Shown: positions 17,219-25,088 of the stretch, one piece after another
Layout of the letters: every line of letters begins with the position of its first letter
Numbering within the stretch: position 1 is the stretch's first letter
Origin: a virus
Virus record (IMG/VR): IMGVR_UViG_3300046512_000283
Coordinates: 1 to 28,001 of that record
Length of the DNA: 28,001 nt
Reading direction: 5' to 3' (one strand)
The notes under the pieces: generated by a model
What the model was told of the DNA's origin: nothing
What the model saw: only the letters and a program-made list of their open reading frames with translations
Database searches by the model: none
Program-made: the position numbers and the translations under genes

Positions 17219-17772
17219 TGGCTTCCGCCGACTTACTTGCACGGGCGAGGGCATGGATGCAGGGAGGCGCGGCCACGCCGGTACCGGCCAGCGTGCCGGT
17301 GGCGCCGGCTGAGCAGCTGAAGGACAACGAGCAGCTCGCGATCGAGATCGCTGCGGCGCTCTGTCGGCGCTTCGAGGGTTTGTTTATGCACCCGTACCTG
17401 TGCCCGGCCGGCGTGCCGTCGATTGGTTATGGCACCACGTACTACGCTGACGGCCGCGCCGTCACGCTGAACGATGCGCCGATCACGAAGGTGCAGGCTG
17501 AGCGCCTGCTGGTGCTCCAGATCCGCGACGTCTACCTTCCGGCCGTCCGCCGACTTTGCCCGGGGATCAACACGCCTGAGCGATTGGCCGCTCTGGTCGA
17601 CTGGTGCTACAACCTCGGCGCCGGCAATCTGAAGACGTCGACACTGCGCCGCCGGATCAACGCTGGGCGATGGCTGGAGGTGCCGGGCGAAATCCGGAAA
17701 TGGAAGTTCGCCGCCGGGAGGGTACTGCGCGGTTTGGTTCTGCGCCGTGATGCTGAGGCGGGCCTTATCTAA
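17218..17772 (+). CDS. Endolysin, GH24 (T4-lysozyme-type) muramidase
   Basis: The protein is 184 residues from the ATG at 17218, chosen for its TAATG junction with the holin-like gene. An Ala/Pro-rich leader (1-35) precedes the lysozyme domain. The catalytic block is 'FEGLFMHPYLCPAGVPSIGYGTT', with E53 as general acid. The positions equal to T4 lysozyme D20 and T26 are C62 and S68, giving an E-x8-C-x5-S triad. The later 'LAALVDWCYNLGAGNLKTSTL' is the conserved GH24 helix region. It has no signal peptide, so export depends on the holin. It hydrolyses the MurNAc-GlcNAc bond. The 3' end overlaps the convergent HTH gene by 8 bases. Confidence 0.85.
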   Translation: MASADLLARARAWMQGGAATPVPASVPVAPAEQLKDNEQLAIEIAAALCRRFEGLFMHPYLCPAGVPSIGYGTTYYADGRAVTLNDAPITKVQAERLLVLQIRDVYLPAVRRLCPGINTPERLAALVDWCYNLGAGNLKTSTLRRRINAGRWLEVPGEIRKWKFAAGRVLRGLVLRRDAEAGLI

Positions 17773-18058
17773 TACGGCCTGAGCTCGCAACTCTGGTCTT
17801 CAACTTTCCGTCGGCATCAGAGATTCGATATTTTCGGCGCCTGTCTCCGAGCAGATACTGTAGTTCGCGAATGCTGAGACCAGTCTCCTCGTGAATTCTT
17901 AGGAGTAATGCTGCTCCGACGGGCATGCGGCGGTGTCGCATTTTGCTGATAAGTGGCGGCTGCACCGAAAGCGTGCGGGCGAGAGCGGCATCATTCTTTG
18001 CTTTCAAACGGCTTTGAATCTCGTCAAGAAGGCGATTCGGGTCGTATGGGAGCGTCAT
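17765..18058 (-). CDS. Phage HTH regulator (Cro/repressor-like)
   Basis: This 97-residue protein starts at the ATG at 18058; a longer TTG start is rejected because it would begin inside the predicted -10 box. The helix-turn-helix is 'NDAALARTLSVQPPLISKMRHRRMPV' (about residues 22-47), followed by 'ALLLRIHEETGLSIRELQYLLG' and a basic tail. Similar single-HTH proteins recur near the ends of betaproteobacterial prophages. It is antisense and convergent to the endolysin, so it could be expressed in the lysogen. A promoter is visible upstream. Confidence 0.8.
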   Translation of the reverse strand: MTLPYDPNRLLDEIQSRLKAKNDAALARTLSVQPPLISKMRHRRMPVGAALLLRIHEETGLSIRELQYLLGDRRRKYRISDADGKLKTRVASSGRIR

Positions 18059-18091
18059 TTGGTTCGCGGGAATAATAGTTGGTAAAAAATA

Positions 18092-18121
18092 ATAATACAA
18101 TAGTTATTTGTCATTTTTCAA
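18092..18121 (-). promoter_or_regulatory. Sigma70-type promoter for the HTH gene
   Basis: Reading leftward, TTGAAA (18116-18121) and TATTAT (18092-18097) are separated by 18 bases in an AT-rich tract. This would place the transcript start about 25 bases before the HTH start codon. Confidence 0.6.
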
Positions 18122-18176
18122 TCGTGCGGGGATGCTCTATCCTATTGAAATCACGAGCCACCTTATGGAGGGGGTT

Positions 18177-18440
18177 ATGATTTCCTTTGAGCCGGGCGAC
18201 TTAGTTTGTAGGGCAGGATCGAACTTTCAGATGCTAGTGATTTCCGAGGTGAGCGGGGATTCAGGCGCAGAGAAAGCGACCTACTTTGATTGTGTTTGGG
18301 AATTCGATGGAGAGCTCCACTGCGAGACGTTTGAGTCGAAAGATTTGCGTTTATTGCGGAGAGAACGTCGGAAGTTGCCTCGACGGGGGATGTTGCAGTT
18401 TCCCCGCAACGATCGGCTACAACTGTCAACACGTGCGTAA
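18177..18440 (+). CDS. YodC-like (DUF2158-type) small protein
   Basis: The protein is 87 residues from the ATG at 18177, preceded by a strong GGAGG; upstream in-frame ATGs lack such a site. The pattern 'F.PGDLV...GS...LVISEV' followed by 'CVWEFDGELHCETFESKDLRLL' matches the YodC/DUF2158 beta-barrel-like fold: GDxV at the N-terminus, C-W in the middle, F..xDL at the end. The C-terminus is Arg-rich. Function is unknown in the family. It is divergent from the HTH gene and resembles the protein encoded leftward at 18737-18982. Confidence 0.7.
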   Translation: MISFEPGDLVCRAGSNFQMLVISEVSGDSGAEKATYFDCVWEFDGELHCETFESKDLRLLRRERRKLPRRGMLQFPRNDRLQLSTRA

Positions 18441-18560
18441 AAAGTTGGCTCTAGGACGTCGGAAAATGTTGGAGTTGATATGGCAATGGTGTGCGATAGA
18501 TAACGAATACCGCGCAAGAGGTATGGCATCTTATAGGCACGATTAATGAAGGAGAGTTAG

Positions 18561-18740
18561 ATGAGCGACGACTTGAAAAACCGTGGTGCGCAGGACCGCG
18601 CCCGCATCAACGTGAACGAACCTCACGAGGTTGCCTATTGGACCAAGGAGTTGGGCGTCACGCGTGAGCGCTTGCAGCAACTGGTGAAAGAGGCTGGCAC
18701 CAGCGCGCAAGCGGTTCGAGAAAAGCTGGCCAGCGACTAA
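18561..18740 (+). CDS. DUF3606 small protein
   Basis: This 59-residue protein has AAGGAG at 18549-18554 upstream. The core 'INVNEPHEVAYWTKELGVT' followed by 'RERLQQLVKEAG' and '..AVREKL' is the DUF3606 signature: an acidic start and two helices, the second HTH-like. The family is widespread in proteobacteria and its role is not established. It is monocistronic as far as visible and overlaps the convergent YodC-like gene by four bases at its stop. Confidence 0.85.
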   Translation: MSDDLKNRGAQDRARINVNEPHEVAYWTKELGVTRERLQQLVKEAGTSAQAVREKLASD

Positions 18741-18982
18741 CCGGCAGGATCTGACGTGTCGCCGGCGGCTTCAACTATGACGAGGTCGCCAGGGCGAAAC
18801 ACTTCAAAGCGCGGCTCGCCGTCGACCGTCCATTCGCAGTAGATTCCGTTCCGCACGCCTTCCCAGTCGTGCTCTTCACCGAGCGCGGAGGACTTCACCC
18901 ACATCACCTGGCCATCCGGATCGCCGCGCTGGCGGACGAGACTACCCTCTGGCGGGCGTTCATGTTTTGCTTCGCTGGTCAT
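18737..18982 (-). CDS. YodC-like small protein, second copy, coupled to SRAP
   Basis: This 81-residue protein starts at the ATG at 18982, which overlaps the SRAP stop (ATGA), so the two are translationally coupled. It contains 'GSLVRQRGDPDGQVMWV' and, later, 'YCEWTVDGEPRFEVFRPGDLVIV'. The order of conserved residues (G.LV, C.W..DGE, F...DL) parallels the rightward gene at 18177, so the two are probably distant paralogues. Function is unknown. Being in an SOS-box operon, it may act in DNA damage conditions. Confidence 0.7.
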   Translation of the reverse strand: MTSEAKHERPPEGSLVRQRGDPDGQVMWVKSSALGEEHDWEGVRNGIYCEWTVDGEPRFEVFRPGDLVIVEAAGDTSDPAG

Positions 18983-19680
18983 AATAATCCCATCTGCGTA
19001 TTTGGCGCTGAGGTGCCCGGCTCGGACTTCTTCGCGCGCGGCGGCACCGGGAATTCCCACGCCCGCATCATCTCGGCTGGGTAGTGGCGTAGGAAGCTGC
19101 GTGCGTACTCGGGGTCGGTGCAACTGAGCCAGTCATCCCATTCCGACTGCGGCACGATCACCAGCGCACGCTTTTCATCGTCCGGTTTGTGGAAGCGGCG
19201 CATCAGCGGGTGCTCGTCGGCGTTGATCGTCAGCTGCGTGAAGCTATGCTCGGGGCCGGCTTCGCCATCCCACTCGCGCCACAGGCCGGCCACGGCGAAC
19301 ATCGACTGGTCGGACATGCCGATGCCCCAACGCACCGGCTTGCCGCTCTCGTAGTTCGGTTCATAGAATGCAGTCATCGGTACCAGGCACAGCTGTGACT
19401 TCTTCCACTGGCCGGAGAACGAGCGCAGCTGTCCGACCGTCTCGGCCCGGGCGTTCATCGTGTCAAACGGGCGCGCGCCGGGCGGGATGCGCTTGCGCGG
19501 CACCAGCCCATAGCTCGCCATCAGGCCCTCGCGATTGCCGCCGGCGCCGCGCCGCACGATCGGCGCGCCGTAATCCTTCCACGTCTCAGTTTTCCAGAAA
19601 CCCGTATCGTGCAGGTCGAGGATCACGCCCATGACGGCGTCCAGCATTTCGGGATCGGGCGGGCGAAAATTCACGCACAT
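18979..19680 (-). CDS. SOS response-associated peptidase (SRAP, YedK/HMCES family)
   Basis: This 233-residue protein starts at the ATG at 19680 with AGGAGG just upstream. The catalytic Cys2 follows Met1 ('MCVNF', where the family usually has MCGRF). Asn76 in 'TMNARAE', Glu107 in 'AFYEPN' and His164 in 'RRFHKP' match the C2/N/E/H set of YedK. Such proteins form a thiazolidine crosslink to abasic sites in single-stranded DNA and protect them. After Met removal Cys2 is the active N-terminus. It is the first gene of a leftward operon, and its promoter overlaps a LexA box. Confidence 0.92.
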   Translation of the reverse strand: MCVNFRPPDPEMLDAVMGVILDLHDTGFWKTETWKDYGAPIVRRGAGGNREGLMASYGLVPRKRIPPGARPFDTMNARAETVGQLRSFSGQWKKSQLCLVPMTAFYEPNYESGKPVRWGIGMSDQSMFAVAGLWREWDGEAGPEHSFTQLTINADEHPLMRRFHKPDDEKRALVIVPQSEWDDWLSCTDPEYARSFLRHYPAEMMRAWEFPVPPRAKKSEPGTSAPNTQMGLL

Positions 19681-19729
19681 GGCGCCTCCTGCGTTGAAAC
19701 TTAAATAATAGCGCTAATTTCTTTTGGTG

Positions 19730-19735
19730 ATTATA
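19730..19735 (-). promoter_or_regulatory. -10 element of the SRAP promoter
   Basis: Reading leftward, a perfect TATAAT lies here, about 50 bases before the SRAP start codon. It overlaps the LexA box by two bases. No good -35 box was found at 16-18 bases. Confidence 0.55.
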
Positions 19736-19753
19736 CTGTATGTGCGTACAGTA
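19734..19753. promoter_or_regulatory. LexA (SOS) box in divergent promoter region
   Basis: CTGT (19736-19739), eight bases, then ACAG (19748-19751), flanked by TA on the left and TA on the right. This is a near-perfect palindrome matching the CTGT-N8-ACAG consensus of gamma/betaproteobacterial LexA. It lies between the SRAP gene (leftward, 54 bases away) and the unknown gene (rightward, 17 bases away) and could repress both. Confidence 0.85.
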
Positions 19754-19769
19754 TTTATTCGAGGAAATA

Positions 19770-20444
19770 ATGAAGGTGTGGGCATCAAGACGACGAGATG
19801 ATGGTGTGGCGCTGACCAGCGCGCTGCCAGTGGTAGATGGCGCATCGCTTCTTGAGCTGGTGGTGGTAGAGGTGACGCTCGACGGCAACCGGCGGCCATC
19901 GAAAGTAGCGCGCCTGAAACCGATAGGCGAGCCGCGCATCTTGGCGCAGCTGCTACTGCCCAAGTTGGTGAAGCTGCAGGGCTGGAATCTGGTGCTGAGC
20001 GGTATCGAGGAATTGAGGGAAGGGCCGGGCCGAGCGCGCGGCATGGCCCAGACATGGGTTTGTACGCTTCGAGTTCCCGGAAATGCCGTTGGATTTAGGG
20101 TCAAGGATACCTGCCAAAACGGCGCGCCCCTCCCAAAAAGTGGCATCCGCGATGCAAGCGGTACGCGCGGCAATCTGGTGGTGAGCACCGATTTCGTCAC
20201 GCCGCTCCATCGGCACACGCTCTGCGCCGAGGTTCACCACCACCAGATATCCACGTTCCCAGCCGGCCGCCTCGTGGACTGCCATATCGAGTGGATGTCG
20301 GACGAGACCTTCGAACTGGGCGGCCTGCGTATCTGGGAAGCGCATGGTGATCGCCCACAGCGCCTGGAGCGTGCCGGCTGGCTATGCGAGGTCGACGTCA
20401 AGGAGCGAGAGCTGACGAAACGCGGGGCGCGGACGCTGCGGTAG
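19770..20444 (+). CDS. SOS-box-controlled hypothetical protein
   Basis: The protein is 224 residues from the ATG at 19770, with GAGG nine bases upstream; an ATG at 19740 falls inside the LexA box and is rejected. Residues 1-105 ('MKVWASRRRDDG', 'SLLELVVVEVTLDGNRRP..', 'GWNLVLSGIEE', 'AQTWVCT') form a beta-rich unit like small proteins found beside phage SRAP genes. Residues about 106-150 look poorly structured. The remainder ('LVDCHIEWMSDETFELGGLRIWEAH') may be a second unit. It might be a fusion, or a gene whose natural stop was lost. Function is unknown; SOS induction is inferred from the box. Confidence 0.55.
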   Translation: MKVWASRRRDDGVALTSALPVVDGASLLELVVVEVTLDGNRRPSKVARLKPIGEPRILAQLLLPKLVKLQGWNLVLSGIEELREGPGRARGMAQTWVCTLRVPGNAVGFRVKDTCQNGAPLPKSGIRDASGTRGNLVVSTDFVTPLHRHTLCAEVHHHQISTFPAGRLVDCHIEWMSDETFELGGLRIWEAHGDRPQRLERAGWLCEVDVKERELTKRGARTLR

Positions 20445-20535
20445 GTCAGACAGGTCGCCGCAATTAGTTGCTGCGTGATATCATCTTGCTTTCTTGGTGT
20501 TGATCGCCTCTCGGTTCCGTTAGCGCTTAAAATTT

Positions 20536-20555
20536 ATTGGCACGAATTTGCCAAT
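20536..20555. repeat. Perfect inverted repeat beside the attachment site
   Basis: ATTGGCA (20536-20542) and TGCCAAT (20549-20555) form perfect 7-bp arms with a 6-base spacer, ending 9 bases before the att-associated motif. It could be a recombinase accessory-protein or repressor site. No T-run follows. Confidence 0.5.
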
Positions 20556-20564
20556 TGCGATTTC

Positions 20565-20609
20565 AAGTCGTTGAATTTAAACGATTTTCGTTTCCGGCTC
20601 GAGGCACCA
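20565..20609 (+). repeat. Attachment-site copy 1 (tRNA 3'-end-like), prophage right end
   Basis: The motif AAGTCGTTGAAT (20565-20576), 15 variable bases, then TTCCGGCTCGAGGCACCA (20592-20609). The last part reads as the T-stem, acceptor strand, discriminator and CCA of a tRNA gene, but no tRNA body precedes it. The same layout and spacing recurs at 23028-23072. The intact tRNA should lie left of the window; its isotype cannot be told from this fragment. Confidence 0.8.
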
Positions 20610-21134
20610 AACCCACTTTTCAGATTTGCAGGTAAAAGCCGCTTTCCCAGTGTTTTACGGGGCTAAAGCGGCTTTTTTGCCTCTGGAACCTTCGATACGA
20701 AAGCGGCGGCTTTAGCTTGGGAGGCGGAGCAGCGTACGGCCGCAACTCGGTGATGATTCGAGAGAATGGCCAAATGAGTTCGACCGCTTCAAGAGGGCTT
20801 CTGTCGAAGAACTTTTTTGCATGGCGCCGCCTTGTGTCAACGATGACAGGACATTCGATTAAATGTCTGTCGATCTCTATGACGGTTCCCGCAGAATTGG
20901 ACGCCGCTCGTTGCATTGATCTGGAGAAGGTCGAGGACATGGTTAGTGAGCTCGAAGGTGCGCTCCAGTCGCATAATGCGCGCGCCGTTGGCATACTGCG
21001 ATGACATCAAAAGGTCTGCCAGCGCAAGACGTTTCTTAATCCGACTGCTATTGTGGTCGCGCCGGAGAGGGGCGGACCAGACCGCTAGCGGGCGCGTAAC
21101 GACCGCGCGCGCAGACTACAGATCGAATACATGC
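20610..21134. other. Mostly non-coding stretch after att copy 1
   Basis: Besides one strong terminator (20634-20678) I see no convincing gene. A + frame at 20717-21004 (95 codons) and an opposite frame overlapping the terminator lack ribosome-binding sites and recognisable domains. The final 130 bases hold only GC-rich sequence before the stop of the leftward metallopeptidase-like gene. Confidence 0.5.
20634..20678 (+). terminator. Strong intrinsic terminator after att copy 1
   Basis: A perfect 12-bp stem (AAAAGCCGCTTT, 20634-20645, with AAAGCGGCTTTT, 20665-20676) encloses a 19-base loop that itself has CCC/GGG pairing. T residues run to 20678. It would stop rightward transcription leaving the prophage, 25 bases past the att core. 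Confidence 0.85.
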
Positions 21135-21875
21135 CTAGTCGCTTGGATTCGACGGAACCGGCTCCCAGTATCCCCCTGGAATTTTGGTTGTGCCCGCGCC
21201 GCCGCCACCACCGCCCCCACCCCCACTACTACCCGGTGGGGGAGGTGGAGGGTAATATGCAGGGGGAAGACCGCCACCTGCGGCCCAAGCTTCGCAATAT
21301 GCCCGATATCTCGCCGAGCCTTTAAACTTCGCTTTGGCAGCGGCAATTACTGCATTTTCATACGCTAATGAACCTGGTGTTTTACCTGTGACTGACGACA
21401 GCAATAGACCGTATAGATCAGCCGGCGCACCAGGGCCTGGTACCACTATAGTTCCCTCGCCTCCGAGCCCCATTTCGTTAATATAGTTGAATACGAAAAG
21501 TGAGGCGAGTGCTTCACGTTCATAGCACCATTCTACTCGTTTTGCGGGATCGCCCGAATAAGCAGTATTGGAGCGTGTGGCGTAAAATGCGTGCCCGAGC
21601 TCGTGCAAAATAATCGACTGGTATGCGCTCATCCAAGGATTGGCGTTGGGTAGAGCGTTTGATAGGTCGGTAGCATCTCGCGGGTTTATTGACATCGTTC
21701 CTGGCCCGGCGATATTGTTATTAAGAGGACCGGGTTCATAAGTGCTATGGTTCGATGTGAATACTATAGTTGAGGTCGCGAGAAAATTATTTATAAACGA
21801 GGCTGTGTTAGGAGATTTTAAGTTATTAATTACTTGCTTTGGATCTGGGGGATTGGTTGGCGTAGTGACTGGCAT
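21135..21875 (-). CDS. HELGH zinc-metallopeptidase-like protein with Pro/Gly tail
   Basis: This 246-residue protein starts at the ATG at 21875 with GGGAG upstream. HELGH at residues 91-95 follows a hydrophobic helix ('YQSIIL'). Twenty-six residues after it, 'CYEREALASLF' supplies a likely third ligand (E121), the gluzincin arrangement. The C-terminus has six prolines, then nine glycines (about 208-226) and 'KIPGGYWEPVP'. There is no signal peptide. It is the second gene of a leftward operon, 12 bases after the secreted protein. The low GC and Asn/Ser/Thr-rich N-terminus suggest foreign cargo. It might be a toxin or effector protease; this is inference only. Confidence 0.8.
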   Translation of the reverse strand: MPVTTPTNPPDPKQVINNLKSPNTASFINNFLATSTIVFTSNHSTYEPGPLNNNIAGPGTMSINPRDATDLSNALPNANPWMSAYQSIILHELGHAFYATRSNTAYSGDPAKRVEWCYEREALASLFVFNYINEMGLGGEGTIVVPGPGAPADLYGLLLSSVTGKTPGSLAYENAVIAAAKAKFKGSARYRAYCEAWAAGGGLPPAYYPPPPPPGSSGGGGGGGGGAGTTKIPGGYWEPVPSNPSD

Positions 21876-23092: not shown

Positions 23093-23284
23093 ATGGCTTC
23101 CGAAAAAACCGTCAAGTTTATTCTGGCCGCCGGCATGGTAGCCGTGGTGTTGGGCGTGGCCGGTTATGTGCTGGTGTTCTGGCACAACTACAACGGTTGC
23201 CAGCAACTGGAAGCGGAAGCGGCCAGAACCGGCAAACCGATGTCTTGCGCCGACATCAAGGCTGCCGCCAAGGCCCGGCGATAA
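23093..23284 (+). CDS. Small single-TM host protein
   Basis: This 63-residue protein has a membrane helix at about residues 9-30 ('FILAAGMVAVVLGVAGYVLVFW') and then a short soluble tail with two Cys ('GCQQ', 'SCAD') and basic end. Codon use fits the host. It begins 21 bases after the att core with no clear ribosome-binding site, so its native promoter may have been separated by integration. It overlaps the convergent PEP-CTERM gene by 29 bases. Confidence 0.6.
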   Translation: MASEKTVKFILAAGMVAVVLGVAGYVLVFWHNYNGCQQLEAEAARTGKPMSCADIKAAAKARR

Positions 23285-23948
23285 AGCTGTCTGCGTGCTT
23301 GCGGCGGCGCGCCGCAAGGCCCAATATGCCCAGTCCGCCCAACAGCATGCCGTAAGTGGCCGGCTCCGGCACGGCGGCAACCTCGTGATACAGACCAATG
23401 GCGATGCTGGGGATGTATCCGGCATACATGGCTGACCAGTTGCCGTCCTTGTAATCATACGCGCCCGAACTCACCCCACCCATGGCCAGGTAATTGAAGC
23501 GGTTGGTCGCTTCGACCTGCAAGGCGAAATAATATGATCCGCTGCTCAGGGCAATGTCGCCAAAGTTGAAAAACTGCCGATAGGCGAGATCACCATGATT
23601 GGCACCGACGTAGGTGAGGGTAGGCGATATGCTGCTGTGGCCGGAGGCCAGCAGGGTGCCCGGGGAGCCGGCGACGCCGTCGGCCGCCAGGAACATCCAG
23701 TTGGCTGTTGTCGGTCCTACCCCGTCCCAATTGAACAAGACATAACTGGCCGCATTAATGACGCTGTCGTTGGCGAGCGTGAATAACTGTGCGGCATATT
23801 GATTGCCGCAGGCGGTGTTAAACAGGCAACTGCCACGAGTGACGTCCACGCCGGAGTCGAATACAGTAGTCGCCTGGACCGGGGCGGAAGTCAGGCTGAA
23901 CACAAATGCTGTTGCAGTTGCCGCGACGAATTTCTGGACCATTTTCAT
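23256..23948 (-). CDS. PEP-CTERM sorting domain protein
   Basis: The protein is 230 residues from the ATG at 23948 with AAGGAGA upstream. A signal peptide (about 1-26, ending 'APVQA') precedes a beta-rich mature domain. The C-terminal signal is 'VPEPATYGMLLGGLGILGLAARRRK': PEP motif, membrane helix and Arg cluster. It would be processed by an exosortase and linked to the surface or exopolysaccharide. Unusually, 13 residues ('HADSFIAGPWRQP') follow the Arg cluster, where most members end within a few residues. The mature domain has two Cys ('SCLFNTACG') that may pair. Confidence 0.88.
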   Translation of the reverse strand: MKMVQKFVAATATAFVFSLTSAPVQATTVFDSGVDVTRGSCLFNTACGNQYAAQLFTLANDSVINAASYVLFNWDGVGPTTANWMFLAADGVAGSPGTLLASGHSSISPTLTYVGANHGDLAYRQFFNFGDIALSSGSYYFALQVEATNRFNYLAMGGVSSGAYDYKDGNWSAMYAGYIPSIAIGLYHEVAAVPEPATYGMLLGGLGILGLAARRRKHADSFIAGPWRQP

Positions 23949-24395: not shown

Positions 24396-25088
24396 TCAAC
24401 CCTGGCGGCGACGGCGTGCAGCGAAGCCCACCAGGCCCAGGCCGGCCAGCAGCATGGCGTAGGTTTCTGGCTCCGGCACGGCGGCAATCGCCGACACTGC
24501 GGTGGTGCTGAAAGTGGTGTAGTTGCCGTACTGGTTGGTTACGTAGGTCTGGAGGCCTGGCACGCCGTAGCCACCGTAGTAGCTCGAAATGCCGACGGTA
24601 TTTTCACCCACCGCGACGTTGCCCAGCGTGATGGAGAAGGTCGCGCTCGAGCCGATCTGGTAGACCGATTCCGTGTACTGGCCCCAGAAGGTGAAGGTCT
24701 TGTAACCAACGACGGCGTCCATATTTTGCGAGGTGTTGGCGCCGCCCAGTGCCAGGTCCAGGCCAGTGGTCGAGAAGCCGGTGCTCCAGTAGCCAGGCGC
24801 GTGGTTGGCGCCGACGTAGGCGTCCGGCACGGTGGCGTCGATGAAGCTGGCGCCGGTAGGCACGTAGATGGTCAGGCCGTCGAGGCCGGTCTGGGTGCCG
24901 GCATAGCCCTGGCCGACGTTTTTCACGGTGTAGGTGAACACGTATTGATTGGTCTCGCCGACCACGGCGGCGGCGGACGAAGTGATTTCATATTGGCCGG
25001 TCAGGTTGGTCTCAACTGCGCCAGCCAGGCTGCTGATGGCAGCGGCAACAGCGAATGCGGCCAACTTGAGAGTGGTTTTTGCCATCAT
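24396..25088 (-). CDS. PEP-CTERM sorting domain protein
   Basis: The protein is 230 residues from the ATG at 25088 (or 25085), after a GGAG ribosome-binding site. A signal peptide (about 1-25, 'FAVAAAISSLAGA') is followed by a DUF11-like beta-sandwich ('NQYVFTYTVKNVGQGYAG', 'GLTIYVPTGASF'). The standard exosortase signal follows: 'VPEPETYAMLLAGLGLVGFAARRRRQG'. It is likely a surface or biofilm-matrix protein. It has its own terminator and a long AT-rich upstream region, so it is probably monocistronic. Confidence 0.9.
   Translation of the reverse strand: MMAKTTLKLAAFAVAAAISSLAGAVETNLTGQYEITSSAAAVVGETNQYVFTYTVKNVGQGYAGTQTGLDGLTIYVPTGASFIDATVPDAYVGANHAPGYWSTGFSTTGLDLALGGANTSQNMDAVVGYKTFTFWGQYTESVYQIGSSATFSITLGNVAVGENTVGISSYYGGYGVPGLQTYVTNQYGNYTTFSTTAVSAIAAVPEPETYAMLLAGLGLVGFAARRRRQG

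What the first reader, a model, noticed from the sequence alone, without database searches (positions are those of the whole stretch)
19680..19770. LexA box controlling a divergent prophage SRAP module
A 20-base near-perfect SOS operator lies between the SRAP gene (with its -10 overlapping the operator) and an unknown gene. It links abasic-site protection, a YodC-like protein and an unknown protein to prophage induction conditions. The phage may protect its own or host single-stranded DNA during SOS.
Basis: partly seen in the sequence, partly recalled or inferred. Interest (0 to 1): 0.62.

Follow-up and report, generated by a model that had tools for sequence, protein, structure and literature searches.

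The report
LexA-controlled prophage SRAP gene cassette
A prophage of Duganella-type soil bacteria carries, as its last genes before its attachment site, a DNA-damage switch (a host LexA operator) between a gene for an abasic-site-shielding protein and a gene of unknown function, and the same switch sits in front of this shielding gene in at least 96 viral sequences while the gene on the other side is exchanged.

Summary
TACTGTATGTGCGTACAGTA (19734-19753) lies between a SRAP gene (18979-19680, -) and an unknown 224-aa gene, P3 (19770-20444, +). In 23 of 23 P3 homologues (19 clusters at 90% identity) both operator arms are invariant while the 8-base core drifts. The lexA genes of 12 Duganella-group genomes carry tandem operators of the same type. 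The box tracks each gene separately: P3 keeps it where SRAP is truncated or missing, and SRAP keeps it with unrelated partners. An IMG/VR scan for box + SRAP start gave 96 real SRAP genes (capped); a scrambled box gave none. Opposite SRAP stand a KS9-gp27/Magia-like family (64), an AP3-like family (11), P3 (8) and others (13). The prophage ends at a 22-bp direct repeat just beyond P3, so this is an attachment-site cargo cassette. A near-identical phage has its own CI-type S24 repressor, which argues against an antirepressor role. SRAP active-site residues are conserved, and most of these SRAPs end in a beta-clamp-binding-like peptide (QMGLL here). LexA control is very likely; replication-fork AP-site protection is probable; P3's function is unknown. 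No binding or induction was measured.

The parts
19734..19753 (.). LexA operator TACTGTATGTGCGTACAGTA
   Evidence: arms invariant in 23/23 P3 homologues; same type as the tandem operators of 12 host lexA genes
18979..19680 (-). SRAP gene (P0001, 233 aa): MCVNF start, Cys2/Asn76/Glu107/His164, C-terminal QMGLL clamp-binding-like peptide
   Evidence: PF02586 E 2.7e-25; invariant residues in 14 relatives; C-termini
18737..18982 (-). P2 (P0002, 81 aa), overlaps the SRAP stop by 4 nt (ATGA), probably co-transcribed; weakly DUF2158/YodC-like
   Evidence: present downstream of SRAP in most relatives
19770..20444 (+). P3 (P0003, 224 aa), unknown mainly beta-strand protein; residues 116-187 weakly match phrog_5560
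   Evidence: last gene before the attachment repeat
19730..19735 (-). TATAAT, candidate -10 of the SRAP promoter, overlapping the 20-base operator by 2 nt
   Evidence: conserved as TATAAT in most relatives; no -35 found
19732..19737 (+). TATACT, candidate -10 of the P3 promoter, overlapping the operator
   Evidence: TATACT in 21 of 23 homologues; inference
19704..19713 (-). second conserved element, read as CGCTATTATT towards SRAP, 16 nt after TATAAT; alternative -10 or unknown regulator site
   Evidence: same spacing in 10 of the 12 listed relatives or more, one with 15; absent elsewhere in the window
20713..20734 (.). prophage attachment repeat TAGCTTGGGAGGCGGAGCAGCG; its direct copy is at position 98 of the near-identical 70-kb record
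   Evidence: integrase at 493-954 of that record

Best explanation
The site is a working LexA operator of the host SOS regulon, placed in a prophage cargo cassette next to the attachment site. In the undamaged lysogen host LexA covers both divergent promoters. When DNA damage activates RecA, LexA is cleaved and SRAP with P2 on one side and P3 on the other are switched on, independently of the phage CI repressor. SRAP then covalently caps abasic sites in single-stranded DNA, probably at replication forks through its C-terminal clamp-binding-like peptide, sparing host or newly replicating phage DNA from strand breaks and mutagenic bypass. P3 is a second SOS-induced product that recurs opposite SRAP; its biochemical role is not known. 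Shown by sequence: operator, its conservation, cassette recurrence, partner exchange, catalytic residues, terminal position. Inferred: LexA binding and induction, AP-site capping by this SRAP, clamp binding, whom it benefits.
For: Operator arms invariant and core variable in 23 P3 homologues. Host lexA operators of the same type in 12 genomes; CTGT-N8-ACAG is the published LexA motif of most beta- and gamma-proteobacteria (PMC3323433). Box with SRAP: 96 true SRAP genes, scrambled box 0. Box with each gene apart from the other: P3 plus box with truncated or no SRAP (L003-L005, L030, L035); SRAP plus box with other partners. SRAP opposite P3 replaced by a MCGR-type SRAP in L027, L037, L042 while P3 and box stay. 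Catalytic residues invariant, as in YedK (PMC9436759). C-terminal clamp-like motif 31/43 SRAPs against 7/367 other ORFs.
Against: No binding or expression data. No recognisable -35. The Burkholderia phage SRAPs mostly lack the clamp-like end (7 of 96), so that step is lineage-restricted. Several SRAP subfamilies in Duganella genomes have no box. E. coli yedK deletion had no effect on Brig1 immunity to T4 (PMC11078745), so a phage-related benefit of SRAP is not established.
Confidence: 0.75

Rival explanations
1. P3 is a LexA-controlled antirepressor of the Tum (phage 186) or Gifsy type: SOS induction works by LexA release of P3, which inactivates the phage repressor.
For: LexA-controlled antirepressors are established (PMC3121763). 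P3 has an operator directly over its start region. 6 of 16 related records show no S24 repressor, though they may be fragments.
Against: 10 of 16 related records, including the near-identical one, encode an S24 CI-type repressor; that one shows the Ser/Lys residues (GESMQP, GQAVIKRL) and an AG site by eye, so it can be SOS-cleaved itself. P3 lies at the prophage end, far from the repressor (about 49 kb in G013), is exchanged for unrelated proteins in other SRAP phages, and is larger and beta-rich.
Confidence: 0.1
2. The cassette is a lysogenic-conversion gene set: it helps the lysogen survive DNA damage rather than helping the phage replicate.
For: Terminal position beside the attachment repeat, own LexA promoter outside the CI circuit, boxes also in front of MCGR-type SRAP genes in Duganella genomes (L252, L253).
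Against: Same expression pattern serves an induced phage; the sequence cannot separate the two. L253 is the same locus as L027, so only L252 is independent.
Confidence: 0.35
3. SRAP and partner are counter-defence genes that protect phage DNA from host base-excising defences such as Brig1-like glycosylases.
For: Glycosylase defence that makes abasic sites exists (PMC11078745); SRAP caps abasic sites (PMC9436759); exchangeable partners fit an arms-race slot.
Against: LexA control fits DNA damage in a lysogen better than early infection; no such defence was looked for in these hosts; no effect of yedK on Brig1 immunity.
Confidence: 0.08
4. The palindrome is a chance match, or only one of the two genes uses it.
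For: Exact CTGTN8ACAG occurs twice in the window, 0.37 expected.
Against: Fixed position and invariant arms in 23 P3 and 12 P1-type SRAP relatives, each gene keeping the box without the other; scrambled control zero.
Confidence: 0.03

Closest known systems
SRAP family (PF02586; YedK, HMCES, YoqW of SPbeta)
   Same: SRAP domain with N-terminal Cys2 and the Asn/Glu/His residues; presence in temperate phages already noted with Burkholderia and SPBc2 examples (PMC3765255)
   Different: Here under a host LexA operator in a divergent cassette with P2 and P3; C-terminal clamp-binding-like peptide; best solved relative is 1zn6, a phage-related protein
Burkholderia phage SRAP loci (KS9 gp28, Magia gp37, AP3 gp4, BgManors32)
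   Same: SRAP preceded by an exact CTGT-N8-ACAG box and a divergent small gene
   Different: Divergent gene belongs to unrelated families; no P3, SRAP only 35-41% identical
LexA-controlled prophage genes: Tum of 186, Gifsy antirepressors, CTX rstR control
   Same: Host LexA directly represses a phage gene, released by SOS (PMC3121763; PMC3323433)
   Different: Those act on the lysogeny switch; this cassette is terminal cargo in a phage with its own S24 repressor
phrog_5560
   Same: Weak match to P3 residues 116-187 (E 5e-6); another member is the gene directly downstream of SRAP in Bordetella phage PHB09
   Different: 90-position single domain; direct P3-PHB09 profile comparison not significant

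Membership tests
LexA/SOS regulon operator | CTGT-N8-ACAG palindrome matching the host LexA motif, overlapping the promoter | tested here: met
   overlap with the candidate -10 is by sequence, -35 not found
LexA/SOS regulon operator | Conserved at orthologous genes | tested here: met
   23/23 P3 homologues, 12 P1-type SRAP relatives
LexA/SOS regulon operator | LexA binding and DNA-damage induction | not testable with these tools
   Needs gel shift and RNA measurement
SRAP (PF02586) | Profile match above the curated cut-off | tested here: met
   89.6 bits, cut-off 27.1
SRAP (PF02586) | Cys2 after Met removal, Asn/Glu/His active-site residues | tested here: met
   C2, N76, E107, H164 invariant in 14 relatives; His equivalence assigned by motif, roles from PMC9436759
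SRAP (PF02586) | Covalent AP-site crosslinking | not testable with these tools
   Needs purified protein
beta-clamp-binding protein | C-terminal QL(S/D)LF-like peptide | tested here: inconclusive
   QMGLL fits the loose consensus QLxLF with two changes; enriched 31/43 against 7/367, but the broad pattern was drawn up after seeing the sequences
YodC / DUF2158 (P2) | Profile match | tested here: inconclusive
   P0002 itself none; 1 of 11 relatives at E 0.0047
LexA-controlled antirepressor (Tum type) | Gene product inactivates the phage repressor; repressor not itself SOS-cleaved | tested here: inconclusive
   Near-identical phage has an S24 repressor that appears cleavable, against this type; activity of P3 not testable here

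The most novel reading that the evidence does not exclude
Across Burkholderiales prophages a LexA-controlled bidirectional cassette forms an SOS-inducible cargo slot: a SRAP gene, itself exchangeable between deep subfamilies, is kept on one side, while the divergent side accepts different unknown small proteins (P3, gp27, AP3 and other families) that act together with SRAP in handling abasic sites or DNA-protein crosslinks, with SRAP brought to the fork by a clamp-binding tail in the Oxalobacteraceae.
Probability: 0.3. Interest if true: 0.7.

Novelty: new variant of a known kind. Interest (0 to 1): 0.52.

Why it matters
SRAP genes in temperate phages have been noted since 2013, with the guess that they sense damage for lysis. 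A direct host-LexA operator in front of at least 96 of them says instead that they are SOS-regulon cargo, switched by the host repressor rather than by CI. The cassette also points to several families of unknown small proteins that are SOS-induced partners of an abasic-site shield, each testable with simple knock-outs. The clamp-binding-like tail would parallel the fork association of eukaryotic HMCES.

Tried and rejected
Strict 3-element pattern in 146 family genomes: no match, too strict, since even the known G001 copy has TATAAA. First AlphaFold model of P3 with 13 sequences was poor (pLDDT 45); 21 sequences gave pLDDT 77, pTM 0.72, but Foldseek found nothing at E <= 0.001 in PDB or BFVD. 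Pfam, NCBIfam and PDB sequence searches of P3: nothing convincing. P3 as a tandem duplication: halves match weakly (36 columns, E 0.02, probability 2%), not claimed. P3 in annotated phages by tblastn: none. The second exact CTGTN8ACAG at 21386 lies beyond the attachment repeat and ranks low with the host matrix: treated as chance. Chance reading of the box rejected. Literature: no paper found that describes LexA operators of phage SRAP genes, in a library lacking most subscription journals. PADLOC not searched.

Full report
Observation. The intergenic stretch 19681-19769 holds TACTGTATGTGCGTACAGTA at 19734-19753. The bare pattern CTGTN8ACAG is expected 0.37 times in such a window and occurs twice; the extended form with TA and TA at the ends is expected 0.0006 times. 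Left of it a SRAP gene runs away (18979-19680, -; PF02586, 89.6 bits), overlapping by 4 nt with an 81-aa gene P2 (18737-18982, -). Right of it a 224-aa gene, P3, runs away (19770-20444, +) with no Pfam or NCBIfam family.

Is it more than chance? Relatives were fetched from viral contigs and from GTDB genomes; named hosts are Duganella, Janthinobacterium and Rugamonas. In 23 of 23 P3 homologues examined (19 clusters at 90% protein identity) an exact CTGT-N8-ACAG lies with its end 17-22 nt before the P3 ATG; arms and the preceding TAxA are invariant while every core column varies. All 12 P1-type SRAP relatives with upstream DNA carry it starting 73-80 nt before the SRAP ATG, most with TATAAT at its edge; L022, at 56% identity, lacks it. 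This is the pattern of a selected operator.

Is it LexA's? The lexA genes of 12 genomes that hold P3 carry two tandem CTGT-N8-ACAG operators, one with TACTGTACAAAAATACAG-type sequence. The same motif is published for beta- and gamma-proteobacteria (PMC3323433). A matrix from the host lexA operators ranks the site first in the window, though it is too narrow a matrix for an absolute test.

Which gene does it serve? Both. P3 keeps the box in the Janthinobacterium-type loci where SRAP is truncated or not detected (L003-L005, L030) and in L035 where the opposite gene is not SRAP. SRAP keeps the box in Burkholderia phages KS9, Magia, AP3 and BgManors32, where the divergent gene is unrelated to P3. 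In L027, L037 and L042 the SRAP opposite P3 is a different, MCGR-type SRAP, while P3 and the box remain, and P2 remains in L027 and L037.

How general? Opposite these 96 SRAP genes stand the gp27/Magia family (64), an AP3-like family (11), P3 (8) and 13 others. The count is a lower bound. The pattern only sees MC-x-N-Y/F starts, so other SRAP subfamilies are not counted, and in Duganella genomes several SRAP subfamilies lack the box.

Prophage anatomy. The window from 17500 to 21875 is the end of a 70,375-base IMG/VR record (G013, 100% at the sampled points). A 22-bp direct repeat, TAGCTTGGGAGGCGGAGCAGCG, is shared by position 98 of that record and window 20713-20734; the integrase is at 493-954. 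So P3 is the last phage gene and host DNA follows, including PEP-CTERM proteins. The same record encodes a CI-type repressor with an S24 peptidase; by eye it has the Ser and Lys residues and an Ala-Gly site, so it should answer to RecA by itself.

What the proteins do. SRAP: C2, N76, E107 and H164 are invariant in 14 relatives; in YedK the corresponding residues carry the AP-site crosslink (PMC9436759; correspondence of His by motif). Solved relatives are 1zn6 (phage-related), 2f20 and human HMCES. C-terminus: most Oxalobacteraceae SRAPs examined end, after a Pro/Ala-rich tail, in QMGLL, QIGLL, QLDLL, QLELI, QADLF, QGSLF, TLDLGF or similar, close to the beta-clamp consensus QL(S/D)LF (PMC9690074; PMC4549789). 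A broad pattern fits 31 of 43 against 7 of 367 other ORFs, a strict one 14 of 43 against 2 of 367. The rows are related and the broad pattern was written after seeing them, so the p-values are not to be taken literally. True MCGRF-type genes and most Burkholderia phage SRAPs lack it. That human HMCES binds PCNA is from my own knowledge, not read here. P3: AlphaFold with 21 sequences gives a mostly beta protein (pLDDT 77, pTM 0.72) with no structural neighbour. Its residues 116-187 weakly match phrog_5560, and the only other hit to that family in the 16 records searched that is not P3 itself is the gene directly downstream of SRAP in Bordetella phage PHB09. This is a second, independent hint that P3 goes with SRAP, but direct profile comparison of the two is not significant.

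Mechanism. Most likely host LexA represses both promoters in the lysogen; SOS opens them without the CI circuit; SRAP caps abasic sites in single-stranded DNA, probably at forks; P3 is an accessory of unknown action. Shown: operator, conservation, exchange, residues, position. Inferred: binding, induction, chemistry, clamp contact, beneficiary. An antirepressor role for P3 is possible but disfavoured.

Known or new. LexA control of phage genes and SRAP in temperate phages are both known (PMC3121763, PMC3765255). The widespread LexA-SRAP bidirectional cassette with exchangeable partners, P3 as a family, and the clamp-like tail were not found in the papers searched. I rate it a new variant of a known kind.

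Noticed in passing
window 18979-18996 (-), C-terminus of SRAP; L024, L027, L037, L042, L258-L272: SRAP proteins of this host group end in beta-clamp-binding-like peptides, in several sequence versions across subfamilies (31/43 against 7/367 control ORFs).
   Followed up: partly
window 19704-19713: A second element, AATAATAGCG (CGCTATTATT towards SRAP), conserved at nearly constant spacing from the LexA box in relatives; role unknown.
   Followed up: partly
L027 (=L253), L037, L042: The SRAP opposite P3 has been replaced by a MCGR-type SRAP with the box and P3 kept.
   Followed up: yes
L074 879-1193 (Bordetella phage PHB09): A phrog_5560-type gene directly downstream of SRAP; same family weakly matches the C-terminal half of P3.
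   Followed up: partly
window 17765-18100 (-): 111-aa helix-turn-helix protein without peptidase domain near the cassette; weak CI-repressor-type hits.
   Followed up: no
window 18108-18440 (+) and 18561-18740 (+): A 110-aa protein (phrog_3261, looks YodC-like by eye) and a DUF3606 protein between lysozyme and the cassette.
   Followed up: no
window 21386-21401: Second exact CTGTN8ACAG, beyond the attachment repeat in host DNA and inside an ORF; probably chance.
   Followed up: partly
window 23256-23948 and 24396-25088 (-): Two PEP-CTERM-like exported proteins in the host flank (sorting tail PEPxTY/PEPETY, seen by eye).
   Followed up: no
L252: A MCGR-type SRAP of a Duganella-group genome also has a LexA box 51 nt upstream, so SRAP may be in the SOS regulon of these hosts more widely.
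   Followed up: partly
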